DNA from: Rikenellaceae bacterium
GTDB lineage: Bacteria; Bacteroidota; Bacteroidia; Bacteroidales; Rikenellaceae
Assembly: GCA_902362705.1 (NCBI GenBank)
Contig: CABIXK010000013.1
Coordinates: 1 to 28,093, forward strand
Length of the DNA: 28,093 nucleotides
Reading direction: 5' to 3'
The notes beneath the pieces were generated by a model, which made no database searches, was not told the DNA's origin, and saw only the letters and a list, made by a program, of their open reading frames with translations. Made by a program: the position numbers and the translations under genes. Below, piece after piece: positions 1 to 28,093 of this stretch. Numbering within the stretch: the stretch's first letter is position 1; the number at the start of each line of letters is the position of its first letter.

Positions 1-6
1 CGCAGC

Positions 7-76
7 CCGTAGCCCCCCCCGGCGGAGGGCTGCTCTTCTCGCCCGAAGGCTCGGCGGCGCCCTCCGCTGGCTACGG
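7..76 (-). repeat. GC-rich hairpin module, copy 1
   Basis: Outer arms ccgtagcc (7-14) and ggctacgg (69-76) pair over 8 bp. Inner arms gcggaggg (22-29) and ccctccgc (60-67) pair over 8 bp. Read on the minus strand, the apex is gcc-ttcg-ggc, a C(UUCG)G tetraloop. It is closely similar to 16073-16141, but the outer arms carry a T-A pair where that copy has C-G. No protein-like reading is evident. Confidence 0.75.
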
Positions 77-102
77 TCTGCAATCCAAGGCGGTGCGCGT
101 TC

Positions 103-4787: not shown

Positions 4788-4788
4788 A

Positions 4789-4812
4789 ACGGTATGGCAG
4801 ACGGTATGGTAG
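4789..4812 (-). repeat. 12-bp direct repeat before the phosphatase start
   Basis: Two adjacent 12-mers, acggtatggcag and acggtatggtag, differ at one base and fill the space just upstream of the phosphatase ATG. They could affect translation initiation or bind a regulator, or be a chance duplication. Confidence 0.5.
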
Positions 4813-4834
4813 TTGAACGGTTTGCGGCGGGCGT

Positions 4835-13988: not shown

Positions 13989-14786
13989 ATGAAACGAATC
14001 CTGCCGACGATCCTCCTCCTGCTGGGCGCCCTGCCCCTGCAGGCCCAGCTCTACCACCCGGGCGAAGTGCTCGAGTACCGCGTGAGCTACCGCGCCAAGA
14101 TGTTCCCCAACACCGAAGTGGGGGCCGTGAGCGTCGCCACGACGCAGGAGGGCTCGGGCGACACGCTCCGCTACAAGGTGGTGGGCAAGGGGCGCACGCT
14201 GCCCACCTACCGCTGGTTCTACAACATCGACGACACCTACACCGTGTGGGTCGACCCCGCGACGCTGCGTCCCCAGCGCTTCGAGAGCGACATCCGCGAG
14301 TCGGACTACACCTTCCGCAGCGCCTACGACTACCGCTGGGCCGACTCGGTGGTCCACACCCGCTGGAGCAGCCGCCAACGCCCCGAGCAGCAGCGGACGA
14401 TGCGCCTGACGGACGAGACGATGGACGCCATCGCCCTCTTCTTCAGCCTGCGCACAGCCGAGGCCGACACGTTCCGCGAGGGCGAGCCCGCGACGCTGCG
14501 CATGGTGCTCCAGGACACGATCCGCGACCTGCAGTACCGCTACCTGGGGCGCGAGCAGAAGAAGATCCGCAACATGGGGCGGTTCGCCACCCTCAAGTTC
14601 GAGTGCCAGCTGGGCACCACCGAGGGATTCTCGTTCACCGACGGCACCGTCTTCACGATCTGGATCTCCGACGACCGCAACAAGATCCCCCTCTGGATCG
14701 AGTCGCCCGTGCGCGTGGGAAGCATCAACGCCTACATATCGGGCTACCGGGGGCTCAAGTACCCGATGGAGAGCCTCATGAAATGA
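13989..14786 (+). CDS. DUF3108 domain exported protein
   Basis: A 265-residue protein with a clear signal peptide (cleavage after LPLQA, about residue 19) and a DUF3108 domain. The YHPGEVLEYRVSYRAKMFPNTEVG opening, abbreviated, is the family hallmark: a lipocalin-like beta structure starting x-PGE-x-L-x-Y-x-V-x-Y. It is probably periplasmic or attached at the outer membrane; function is unknown. It lies 41 bp after recG without a visible promoter, so it likely rides on the recG transcript. The last two sense codons and the stop are part of a 7-bp-period repeat tract that continues into the spacer. Confidence 0.8.
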   Translation: MKRILPTILLLLGALPLQAQLYHPGEVLEYRVSYRAKMFPNTEVGAVSVATTQEGSGDTLRYKVVGKGRTLPTYRWFYNIDDTYTVWVDPATLRPQRFESDIRESDYTFRSAYDYRWADSVVHTRWSSRQRPEQQRTMRLTDETMDAIALFFSLRTAEADTFREGEPATLRMVLQDTIRDLQYRYLGREQKKIRNMGRFATLKFECQLGTTEGFSFTDGTVFTIWISDDRNKIPLWIESPVRVGSINAYISGYRGLKYPMESLMK

Positions 14787-14819
14787 GAAATTGAAAATAG
14801 AAAATTGAAAGTTGAAGGT
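14778..14819 (+). repeat. Heptad-period A-rich tract at the DUF3108 stop
   Basis: Six consecutive 7-mers: atgaaat, gagaaat, tgaaaat, agaaaat, tgaaagt, tgaaggt. The stop codon TGA (14784-14786) lies within the tract, and a TTG at 14805-14807 can serve as the -33 element of the next gene. Confidence 0.8.
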
Positions 14820-16015: not shown

Positions 16016-16072
16016 CCCGGAGATTTGCGTCGCGGGCGACAAATCCGGAGGCCTTCGGAGGCTTTTTGCAGG

Positions 16073-16141
16073 CCGCAGCCAGCGGAGGGGCCGGCGAGCC
16101 TTCGGGCGAGACGGGCAGCCCTCCGCGCCGGGTGGCTGCGG
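16073..16141 (+). repeat. GC-rich hairpin module, copy 2 (best-formed)
   Basis: Outer arms ccgcagcca (16073-16081) and tggctgcgg (16133-16141) pair over 9 bp. Inner arms gcggaggg (16082-16089) and ccctccgc (16119-16126) pair over 8 bp. The apex gcc-ttcg-ggc (16098-16107) forms a UUCG tetraloop. The sequence between the arms is close to copy 1. Confidence 0.8.
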
Positions 16142-16192
16142 GCTGCCGGCTCTGCGAGCCGAAAACCGCCTGTTCTTTCTTTGAAGAAAGAA

Positions 16193-20017: not shown

Positions 20018-20034
20018 CCGGCCCCTCGGGCCGG
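20018..20034 (-). terminator. Possible terminator hairpin after the aminopeptidase P gene
   Basis: A perfect 7-bp stem (ccggccc/gggccgg) with a 3-base loop, about 50 bp after the stop. No T-run follows directly, so termination is uncertain. Confidence 0.35.
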
Positions 20035-20039
20035 GCAGC

Positions 20040-20081
20040 CCGCAGCCACCCCCGGCGAAGGGCCGCTCCGTCGGCCGCGCC
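20040..20081 (+). repeat. Partial hairpin module ending at the aminopeptidase P stop
   Basis: It begins ccgcagcca, continues ggcgaagggc and ctccgtcgg, and matches the left half of the module at 23325-23392. The second half is missing, and the repeat stops where the coding region begins. Confidence 0.55.
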
Positions 20082-22991: not shown

Positions 22992-23002
22992 CCACAGCAA
23001 AT

Positions 23003-23030
23003 TGAAAGTTGAAAATGGAAAATTGAAAAT
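23003..23030 (+). repeat. Heptad-period A-rich tract
   Basis: Four 7-mers in strict register: tgaaagt, tgaaaat, ggaaaat, tgaaaat. Followed by a run of nine G (23032-23040). Confidence 0.8.
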
Positions 23031-23050
23031 AGGGGGGGGGATTTGCGAGG

Positions 23051-23113
23051 CGCAGCCAGCGAAGGGCGGCACGAGCTGTGCGAGTTGCGGGTCTTCGCCG
23101 GGAGTGGGTGCGG
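23051..23113 (+). repeat. GC-rich hairpin module, copy 3
   Basis: Outer arms cgcagcc (23051-23057) and gggtgcg (23106-23112, one mismatch). Inner arms gcgaag (23059-23064) and cttcgc (23093-23098), where copies 1 and 2 have gcggag and ctccgc: both arms changed together. Confidence 0.65.
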
Positions 23114-23324
23114 CCCGCCGGCCTCCGGCCGCCGTTTCGCAACCAATATAGTGCCCTGCAATAGCCCGGCAACCACTCCCATTTTCAATTTGCATTCGGG
23201 CAGCAGCCTGCGGAGGGACGAACGAGCGAGAGCGAAGTGCGGGCCTCCGCCGCCGGAGGCTGCGGCCCGCGCAGCTGGCGCTGCGGTGGAAAGCAACTAT
23301 CAGCCCCGGCCGGAGGCCGGCAGA

Positions 23325-23392
23325 CCGTACTCGCCCCCGAGCGAAGGGCTGCTCTGTCGGCGAAGCCTCCCGAGCACCTTCGCCGGCTACGG
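23325..23392 (-). repeat. GC-rich hairpin module, copy 4
   Basis: Outer arms ccgta and tacgg (23325-23329, 23388-23392); inner arms gcgaag (23341-23346) and cttcgc (23378-23383). The order ccgta, ccccc, gcgaaggg, ctgctct matches the corresponding parts of copy 1. Confidence 0.65.
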
Positions 23393-23468
23393 GCCGAGAA
23401 CAGAGACAGAACTCTTCAAGCAGCAGCGGCTCCTAACCGGGCGCTGGCTACGACCCGAAAACACCGCC

Positions 23469-23496
23469 ATTTTCAATTTTCAACTTTCCATTTTCA
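23469..23496 (-). repeat. Heptad-period tract, inverted orientation
   Basis: Plus-strand 7-mers attttca, attttca, actttcc, attttca are the complement of the tgaaaat units at 23003-23030. Confidence 0.8.
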
Positions 23497-23606
23497 ATTC
23501 GCCCCGCCTTGCCTTTACGCTCGACTTTTCGTATCTTTGGCTGCGCCCAAGATACTCCCGCTCGGCAAAACGCAAGCGAGCTTGCTTTTGCCCTCGCTTA
23601 TTCGTA
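23476..23606. repeat. 131-bp inverted repeat, left copy
   Basis: Complementary to 27837-27967 with four mismatches by my alignment. It covers part of the heptad tract and the first promoter repeats. It flanks deoC, ispG and the GH109-like gene together with the right copy. Confidence 0.85.
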
Positions 23607-23685
23607 CATTTGACTGCGTCGAACGCACTCTCGCTCGGCAAAACGCAAGCGAGCTTGCTTTTGCCCTCGCTTATTCGTACATTTG
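23509..23685 (+). promoter_or_regulatory. Tandem 73-bp promoter repeat upstream of deoC
   Basis: Three -7 boxes lie exactly 73 bp apart: TATCTTTG (23532-23539), TACATTTG (23605-23612) and TACATTTG (23678-23685). The last two 52-bp cores (23561-23612, 23634-23685) are identical. Each core contains a palindrome gcaaaa-c-gcaagc-ga-gcttgc-ttttgc (23565-23591, 23638-23664), whose gCTTG sits 20 bp before the -7 box and can act as -33. The deoC start is 25 bp after the last box. Confidence 0.8.
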
Positions 23686-24650: not shown

Positions 24651-24773
24651 TGTTTCGCGCTCGAGGAGGGAGGGGTGCCGCCGGAGGCCGCGCCCCGATC
24701 GTCCCTCCGCTGGCTACGGTCTGCCGCAAGGCGCCAGACCGTTCGCGAAATATCGGCCGCAGGCCGGCGGGCC

Positions 24774-24832
24774 GCAGCCACCGGCGGCGAAGGTCCGCAA
24801 CTCTTGGCAGAGCCGCGGTCTTCGCTGGCTGC
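24774..24832 (-). repeat. GC-rich hairpin module, copy 5
   Basis: Outer arms gcagcca (24774-24780) and tggctgc (24826-24832) pair perfectly; inner arms gcgaag (24787-24792) and cttcgc (24820-24825) pair perfectly. On the minus strand the apex adds ccgc/gcgg and ctct/agag pairs. Confidence 0.75.
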
Positions 24833-24862
24833 CGGCCCATTATTCGGTGCCGCGCAGCCCCA

Positions 24863-27754: not shown

Positions 27755-27911
27755 CAAAGATACGAATAAGCCGAGTGAAAAAAGCAAGCTTGCTTGCATT
27801 TTTTCCGAGGCGCAGTATCTTGGGCGCAGCCAAAGATACGAATAAGCGAGGGCAAAAGCAAGCTCGCTTGCGTTTTGCCGAGCGGGAGTATCCTGGGCGG
27901 AGCCAAGGATA
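27755..27911 (-). promoter_or_regulatory. Tandem promoter repeats upstream of the GH109-like gene
   Basis: Minus-strand -7 boxes TATCTTTG (27762-27755), TATCTTTG (27838-27831) and the imperfect TATCCTTG (27911-27904), spaced 76 and 73 bp. Palindromes lie between them: gcaaaa-gcaagc-tc-gcttgc-g-ttttgc (27852-27878) and the perfect agcaagcttgct (27783-27794). This is an inverted relative of the array before deoC. Confidence 0.75.
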
Positions 27912-27967
27912 CGAAAAGTCGAGCGTAAAGGCAAGGCGGGGCGAATTGAAAGTGGAAAGTTGAAAAT
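27837..27967. repeat. 131-bp inverted repeat, right copy
   Basis: Complement of 23476-23606 with four mismatches. Two of those mismatches compensate each other inside a palindrome (see findings). Confidence 0.85.
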
Positions 27968-27974
27968 GGAAAAT
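27947..27974 (+). repeat. Heptad-period A-rich tract
   Basis: 7-mers tgaaagt, ggaaagt, tgaaaat, ggaaaat in register. It partly overlaps the right copy of the inverted repeat. Confidence 0.8.
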
Positions 27975-28028
27975 GGGCGGGCTGTCGGCTCTGCTGGCCG
28001 AAAGGCAGTGAATTGAAAATGGCGGTGT

Positions 28029-28093
28029 TTTCGGGTCGTAGCCAGCGCCCGGCTAAGAGCCGGGGTCTTTCTATTTTCGGGCGGCAGCCAGCG
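28029..28093 (+). repeat. Partial hairpin modules at the window edge
   Basis: Contains gtagccagcg (near 28038), a hairpin cccggct-aag-agccggg (28048-28064), and a second gcagccagcg at the last bases. The segment from about 28010 to 28050 is the complement of 23436-23475. Truncated by the window end. Confidence 0.5.

What the first reader, a model, noticed from the sequence alone, without database searches (positions are those of the whole stretch)
16073..16141. Dispersed intergenic hairpin module whose arms co-vary between copies
Five copies (7-76, 16073-16141, 23051-23113, 23325-23392, 24774-24832) plus partial copies (20040-20081, 24704-24720, 28029-28093) share one plan: outer arms CGYAGCC/GGCTRCG and inner arms GCGGAG/CTCCGC or GCGAAG/CTTCGC. 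Arm changes are matched: C-G becomes T-A in the outer stem of copy 1, and G-C becomes A-T in the inner stem of copies 3-5. Copies 1 and 2 end in a UUCG tetraloop. This points to maintenance of a folded form, as RNA or as cruciform DNA, and not to simple GC-rich filler. All copies are intergenic. I know of no described family that it matches.
Basis: seen in the sequence. Interest (0 to 1): 0.72.

Follow-up and report, generated by a model that had tools for sequence, protein, structure and literature searches.

The report
Repeated intergenic hairpin element in Rikenellaceae
Some gut bacteria related to Alistipes carry from dozens to an estimated thousand copies of a short folding DNA repeat between their genes; it looks like a self-spreading or gene-converted repeat whose folded form is kept, and the enzyme that spreads it is unknown.

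Summary
Relatives carry more: 145 of 150 scored candidates in G170, 95 copies per 200 kb in G175 (about 1,200 per genome, extrapolated), 147 in G223. It was found in 35 of 268 Rikenellaceae genomes and 0 of 393 sampled Bacteroidales genomes. Of 409 copies in G170 and G175 loci, none overlapped a called gene by over 20 nt. Across 84 copies from 15 genomes, 89.7% of pair cells pair (at most 48.5% in slid controls).

An RNA role for single copies is not favoured: no transcription-strand bias, and G·T and A·C mismatches about equal in core pairs, although the foot pairs show G·T excess. Best reading: a new family of REP/BIME-like non-autonomous intergenic repeats, spread by copying or gene conversion. 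It fails two GTAG-REP criteria: the tag is paired, and no RAYT-type gene was found beside it. Mobilizer and function are unknown.

The parts
3..80 (-). full body copy A (type I); its tail would lie off the window
   Evidence: E 1.2e-13
16069..16145 (+). full body copy B (type I), the copy of the finding
   Evidence: E 6.8e-13; no copy found in the orthologous gap of G170
16147..16161 (+). tail hairpin of copy B
   Evidence: 6-bp perfect stem, 3-nt loop
20036..20084 (-). partial copy G (3' part); the orthologous gap in G170 holds a full copy
   Evidence: E 5e-4
20018..20034 (-). tail hairpin of copy G
   Evidence: 7-bp stem
23046..23117 (+). full body copy C
   Evidence: E 9.1e-12
23119..23131 (+). 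tail hairpin of copy C
   Evidence: 5-bp stem
   Evidence: E 7.5e-13
23270..23285 (+). tail hairpin of copy D
   Evidence: 6-bp stem
23321..23396 (-). full body copy E
   Evidence: E 6.6e-12
23306..23320 (-). tail hairpin of copy E
   Evidence: 6-bp stem
24768..24838 (-). full body copy F
   Evidence: E 1.3e-11
24754..24766 (-). tail hairpin of copy F
   Evidence: 5-bp stem
24704..24718 (-). 5' half copy H (outer and inner 5' arms only)
   Evidence: pattern match; not returned by the model
28037..28062 (+). doubtful deletion derivative: 5' start CGTAGCCAGCG followed by a hairpin
   Evidence: sequence; model E about 1

Best explanation
A new family of high-copy, non-autonomous, REP/BIME-like intergenic repeats of Rikenellaceae. 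Shown: the unit shared by dispersed copies in G175 is a ~75-nt imperfect hairpin with sharp ends. Its ends are inverted repeats of about 13 bp (type II: CGGG.YGCAGCCT ... AGGCTGCGGCCCG), an inner stem GCGRAGG/CCTYCGC lies behind a 3' bulge, and most copies have a short perfect tail hairpin directly 3'. Inferred: copies spread, or are homogenised by gene conversion, as DNA. An enzyme acting in trans, perhaps a single-strand HUH-type transposase now lost or too divergent to detect, recognises the folded strand, so pairing is kept in the replicating lineage while single copies decay in intergenic space. The tail's changing but paired arms are best explained by intra-hairpin template switching.
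For: High and patchy copy number: G170 145 of 150 scored, G175 150 of 150, G168 34 of 150, the other 17 of 20 genomes 0-3 weak matches; 35 of 268 family genomes; G223 147 of 150 scored. Contiguous stretches: 12 per 200 kb in G170, 95 per 200 kb in G175. 0 of 65 and 0 of 344 copies genic. Dispersed similar copies: 2,503 non-independent pairs >=88% identical in G175, similarity beginning at median 0 and ending at median +1 of the body (G170: 45 pairs, 2 and 7; G223: 47 pairs, 1 and 6). No 3-8 nt target duplication above chance in G175, G170 or G223. Gaps with conserved neighbours between window and G170: one shared, one window-only, one G170-only. No transcription-strand bias. Core mismatches 106 G·T, 89 A·C. 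Compensated subfamily changes, e.g. GCAGCC/GGCTGC to GGAGCC/GGCTCC in G223.
Against: No mobilizer found: Y1_Tnp passes its cut-off in 5 of 268 family genomes, 3 of which (G011, G254, and G208 with stops in frame) carry the element; nhmmer at E<=10 over the 8 Y1 loci finds no element. The RAYT model NF047646 passes in 0 of 35 element-bearing genomes. No convincing autonomous copy in the sampled loci. No clean empty site could be aligned; intergenic DNA of the nearest genomes is too diverged. Sharp limits are also what gene conversion would give. The foot pairs have 155 G·T against 22 A·C. Promoter avoidance is not general: G170 density is 9 per 16.3 kb in divergent and 24 per 48.5 kb in co-directional gaps, and 3 of the 6 window copies are in divergent gaps. 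Many genomes look fragmented and their completeness is not told.
Confidence: 0.6

Rival explanations
1. Structured RNA or UTR element (stability, termination or attenuation): copies are transcribed and selection on each RNA keeps the pairs; the competing c:c' helix would make it a two-state switch.
For: Covariation in the long hairpin and in c:c'; G170 enrichment between convergent genes, 28 per 19.6 kb against 24 per 48.5 kb co-directional; G·T excess in the foot pairs (155/22) and in pair 8:66 (39/0).
Against: No preference for the transcribed strand (104/111; 15/9); core mismatches about equal (106/89); no run of T directly after the tail in most flanks read; patchy presence in close relatives; c:c' is in the predicted minimum of 0 of 84 (RNA) and 1 of 84 (DNA) copies.
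Confidence: 0.18
2. Purely mutational palindrome maintenance: template switching between arms (quasipalindrome correction) creates and repairs the pairs without any function, in an old repeat family homogenised by gene conversion.
For: Tail hairpins: perfect stem of 5 bp or more in 48 of 62 (G170) and 300 of 338 (G175) flanks against 4 and 17 in shuffles. Mechanism described in PMC8794818 (abstract and part of the introduction seen). Near-equal core mismatches.
Against: Does not by itself explain the sharp unit, hundreds of copies, or expansion in single genomes; the body arms change far less than the tail.
Confidence: 0.16
3. DNA-binding or nucleoid site (BoxC/PIT- or BIME-like cruciform) kept for chromosome organisation.
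For: Intergenic and in both orientations; BoxC is reported so too (PMC4666352, passages).
Against: Weak or no matches in 17 of 20 close relatives; the pyrimidine arm is central with purine-rich arms on both sides, unlike the Py-Pu-Pu order of the BoxC motif.
Confidence: 0.06

Closest known systems
GTAG-tagged REPs and REPtrons (RAYT/TnpA_REP)
   Same: Short imperfect hairpins, intergenic, high copy, clusters, subfamilies with complementary stem changes; GYAG in many copies
   Different: GYAG lies inside a paired stem, subfamilies have GGAG or GAAG, bodies are ~75 nt with a bulge and a tail hairpin, and no RAYT gene was found beside a copy
TnpA_REP subclass 2.6 'atypical' structures of Bacteroidetes and subclass 2.4 'double foot' REPs (PMC6006769: section 25 and passages)
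   Same: Same phylum; atypical structures with copies elsewhere in the genome; a double foot is likewise a terminal tetranucleotide with its complement at the other end
   Different: There the repeats flank the transposase gene; no such gene found here. Their sequences are in a supplement I could not read, so identity is untested
BIMEs / BoxC (PIT) elements
   Same: Clusters, intergenic, no strand bias, no visible mobility gene
   Different: Different sequence; BoxC has a Py-Pu-Pu triplex order
MITEs of Bacteroidetes (BrickBuilt of Porphyromonas)
   Same: Small non-coding repeats, inverted ends

Membership tests
GTAG REP / REPIN | tetranucleotide GTAG (or degenerate GYAG/GYRG) unpaired at one end of the stem-loop | tested here: not met
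   GYAG is within the outer stem and pairs with CTRC; some subfamilies have GGAG (G223) or GAAG (G226, G169)
GTAG REP / REPIN | RAYT gene in the genome flanked by the repeats | tested here: not met
   PF01797: 0 of 20 close genomes over cut-off, 5 of 268 family genomes, no element at the 8 loci; NF047646 0 of 35 over cut-off. Genomes may be incomplete
REP/BIME in the wide sense | high-copy intergenic imperfect palindromes, often clustered | tested here: met
MITE of DDE transposase | target-site duplication | tested here: not met
   perfect 3-8 nt flanking repeats (offsets up to 2) at chance in G175, G170, G223
Rfam RNA family | match at gathering score | tested here: not met
   0 in the window; only sub-threshold hits, E 0.007-0.66, to unrelated families in two stretches
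cis-acting RNA element | fixed orientation to the gene | tested here: not met
   104/111 in G175 and 15/9 in G170
TnpA_REP subclass 2.6 repeat | sequence and structure of the published Bacteroidetes repeats | not testable with these tools

The most novel reading that the evidence does not exclude
A mobile element with a built-in variable palindrome: a conserved foldable body carries a tail hairpin whose stem differs from copy to copy (25 distinct inner hexamers among 224 G175 tails with stems of 7 bp or more) yet stays perfectly paired, and a body with two competing helices that both covary. It would be spread by an unknown, non-RAYT enzyme that reads shape more than sequence, with tail diversification a by-product or part of its reaction.
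Probability: 0.2. Interest if true: 0.78.

Novelty: new variant of a known kind. Interest (0 to 1): 0.5.

Why it matters
In the sampled stretches of G175 there is about one copy per 2 kb, which makes the element a large part of the intergenic DNA of a gut bacterium. It shows REP-like expansion without a detectable RAYT, so the search for the mobilizer is directly testable. The tail hairpin offers hundreds of natural replicates of a stem that changes sequence but keeps pairing, a test bed for separating selection on structure from template-switch mutation. Searches for structured RNAs by covariation would score this element highly although single copies show no preference for the transcribed strand.

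Tried and rejected
RAYT hypothesis: PF01797 and NF047646 searches. Weak NF047646 hits in frames of about 470-570 aa in 10 genomes (E 0.003-0.06) are not transposases in the two read: both score as Rne/Rng ribonuclease (frames).

Replication-strand bias: in G175 orientation goes with GC skew (p=0.0026), in G170 not (elements not masked); the 2.69-Mb contig of G223 shows none by eye over 146 positions. Not relied on.

About 308 sites stand beside a body end and about 13 do not (26 counted on both strands; some of these are beside degenerate bodies, by eye), in 30 G175 loci. Tail as intrinsic terminator: no T run directly after it in most flanks read. Triplex (BoxC): arm order is wrong. Autonomous copy: none convincing.

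Counts of distinct tail stems (30 and 64) include nested strings, so they overstate; one search gives 10 and 25 inner hexamers.

G·T against A·C: the equality rests on chosen pairs. Left out of 106/89: foot 155/22, pair 8:66 39/0, pair 12:62 11/94 (a bulge in type I), inner end 32/51; all 20 long-hairpin pairs give 300/221. In view of the foot I lowered the best explanation from 0.62 to 0.60, raised the RNA rival from 0.15 to 0.18 and lowered the mutational rival from 0.17 to 0.16 while checking.

RNAalifold on A4 predicted c:c' only and missed the long hairpin; I counted both as fixed structures. First gene calls chose wrong frames in the window and were replaced.

The order search, 0 of 393, scored 12 candidates per genome and had no known positive; the family search scored 17. 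Loci were chosen because they held hits; stretches used for densities are contiguous, but I had seen the hit list when choosing contigs. One search used 84 of 471 full-length copies (quota per genome, under 90% identity within a genome).

Full report
Observation. The window (28,093 bases, GC 68%) has no Rfam match at gathering score. Six full copies of one imperfect hairpin were aligned and folded; a covariance model R1 built from them returns these six and one partial. Three of the six (B, D, F) fold better than dinucleotide shuffles and three (A, C, E) do not, so the case rests on recurrence and covariation. No genome is held for the window itself.

Copy number and distribution. With R1, 145 of 150 scored candidates in G170, 150 of 150 in G175 and 34 of 150 in G168 match at E<=1, while the other 17 of 20 genomes give 0 to 3 weak matches. 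An earlier search of 7 genomes at E<=0.01 gave 0. In the family, 35 of 268 genomes match at E<=0.001 (17 candidates scored per genome); in an even sample of the order, 0 of 393 at E<=1e-4 (12 scored). Contiguous stretches give 12 copies per 200 kb in G170 and 95 per 200 kb in G175, about 1,200 in a 2.5-Mb genome by extrapolation. An nhmmer profile finds 420 matches in the window, G170, G175 and G168 loci and 0 in 11 loci of six relatives.

Anatomy. In the direction AGCGGAGG first: foot CRGS.C, outer arm GYAGCC (a), one base, inner arm GCGRAGG (b), variable loop, arm GCRGSCC (c) overlapping CCTYCGC (b'), a bulge of about 6-7 nt, outer arm GGCTRC (a'), end GGSCYG (c'). Type I ends GGGCYG, type II GGCCCG. 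Dispersed copies in G175 share similarity from the first to the last base of this body (2,503 pairs; 1,566 end within 0-4 nt of the body end). A perfect hairpin follows on the 3' side: stem of 5 bp or more in 48 of 62 G170 flanks and 300 of 338 G175 flanks, against 4 and 17 in shuffled flanks. Of hairpins with stems of 7 bp or more touching G175 bodies, 224 are on the 3' side and 1 on the 5' side (29 and 0 in G170); 197 and 169 further intergenic hairpins do not touch a full body. In the window 6 of 6 copies with a readable flank have a tail. Hairpins with the common tail stems nearly always stand beside a body end.

Covariation. On 84 copies from 15 genomes including the window, aligned without structure, the long hairpin pairs in 89.7% of cells with 122 two-sided changes against 46 in shuffles; sliding the partner by 1-3 columns gives 34-49% and 9-29 changes. 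Examples: pair 8:90 (CG 55, GC 12, UA 5, AU 3) and 17:74 (GC 54, AU 17, CG 1). Two other measures of that call are weaker: 8 pairs with a two-sided change (30 of 500 shuffles as high) and 30 further pair types (12 of 500). The helix c:c' pairs in 95.8% of cells with 59 two-sided changes against 25 in shuffles, all at two pairs (489 of 500 shuffles also have two such pairs). Within G170 type I copies its variable pair reads GC 19, AT 14, GT 2, AC 1. Foot and c carry the same letters, so c' can pair with either. By my reasoning c:c' cannot easily coexist with the long hairpin, which is more stable (mean -44.0 against -29.5 kcal/mol with RNA, -24.9 against -15.4 with DNA parameters) and appears in most minima (a:a' in 78, b:b' in 60, c:c' in 0 of 84 with RNA). 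Copies of a genome are related, so these counts are not independent events and the shuffles do not correct for that.

RNA or DNA. If each copy were selected as an RNA, G·U would be tolerated and A·C not. Over 413 distinct rows, mostly G175 (337), the core pairs of the a and b stems give 63 G·T and 54 A·C (p=0.46) and c:c' gives 43 and 35. Left out are the foot (155/22), pair 8:66 (39/0), pair 12:62 (11/94) and the inner end (32/51); some of these are subfamily differences, but the foot excess is against a simple DNA reading. Orientation to co-directional genes is 104 same and 111 opposite in G175, 15 and 9 in G170. By gap type, G170 has 28 copies in 19.6 kb convergent, 24 in 48.5 kb co-directional and 9 in 16.3 kb divergent; G175 has 67 in 23.1, 215 in 83.9 and 48 in 32.9 kb; the window has 2 convergent, 3 divergent and 1 at the edge. 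So divergent gaps are poorer in G175 only. G175 arrays are head to tail (228 same, 8 different neighbours within 500 bp); G223 neighbours are mixed (13 and 11).

Mobility. Between window and G170, three gaps with conserved neighbours hold a copy in at least one genome: one in both (partial in the window), one in the window only (copy B), one in G170 only (window 4788-4834). An orthologous gap of G227 and G223 has a copy only in G227. No target duplication is seen. T precedes 83% of 196 type II bodies in G175 and 67% of 18 in G170, but not type I bodies of G175 (12%) nor type II of G223 (20%). Known mobilizers were not found.

Comparison. GTAG REPs are described for Proteobacteria, Cyanobacteria, Chloroflexi and the PVC group (PMC3733652, passages). 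Bacteroidetes TnpA_REP subclass 2.6 has 'atypical' repeats identified by eye (PMC6006769, section 25 and passages). The present element resembles these in kind but fails two defining features of GTAG REPs tested here. The RepRanger paper (PMC12306157, one passage) lists three Bacteroidota outside Rikenellaceae in that passage. A human-microbiome RNA survey (PMC8040213, passages) names Alistipes once, for an L20 leader, and reports palindromic candidates from Bacteroidetes (HMP2_4205, HMP2_1065) that I could not compare with the element. PMC2267715 has none of the Bacteroidetes names searched; PMC5771137 was seen in passages.

Verdict. Real, structured, abundant in some genomes and not found described in my searches; most likely a REP/BIME-like repeat family, with function and mobilizer open.

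Noticed in passing
window 23452-23643 and 27800-27991: 192-nt inverted repeat pair, 88% complementary, containing GTATCTTTGGCTGCGCCCAAGATAC and AAAACGCAAGCGAG motifs; similar stretches also in G175 (L157) and G177 (L181) by BLAST.
   Followed up: partly
window 22992-23030, 27929-27970, 14774-14810: AT-rich arrays of GAAAATTGAAAA type beside some hairpin copies; in G175 ATTCAAAATTCA spacers follow many tail hairpins.
   Followed up: no
L218-L247 (G223): Many elements are embedded in another dispersed palindrome, TTAACCGTACGGTTAA-like, forming mosaics.
   Followed up: no
L212 around 1400-2100: A Y1 transposase gene of G254 is flanked by GCAGGGC..GCCCTGC-like hairpins, by eye a possible different REPtron.
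   Followed up: no
alignment A4 columns 71-87: In many copies the inner 3' arm can also pair with bulge plus outer arm (CCTCCGC-CGG-GCGGAGG or CTTCGC-GGG-GCGAAG), a further competing hairpin, seen by eye; one search counts 49 perfect hairpins of 7 bp or more inside G175 bodies.
   Followed up: partly
L152-L209 (G175): Element orientation goes with local GC skew (p=0.0026), not seen in G170 or, by eye, in G223.
   Followed up: partly
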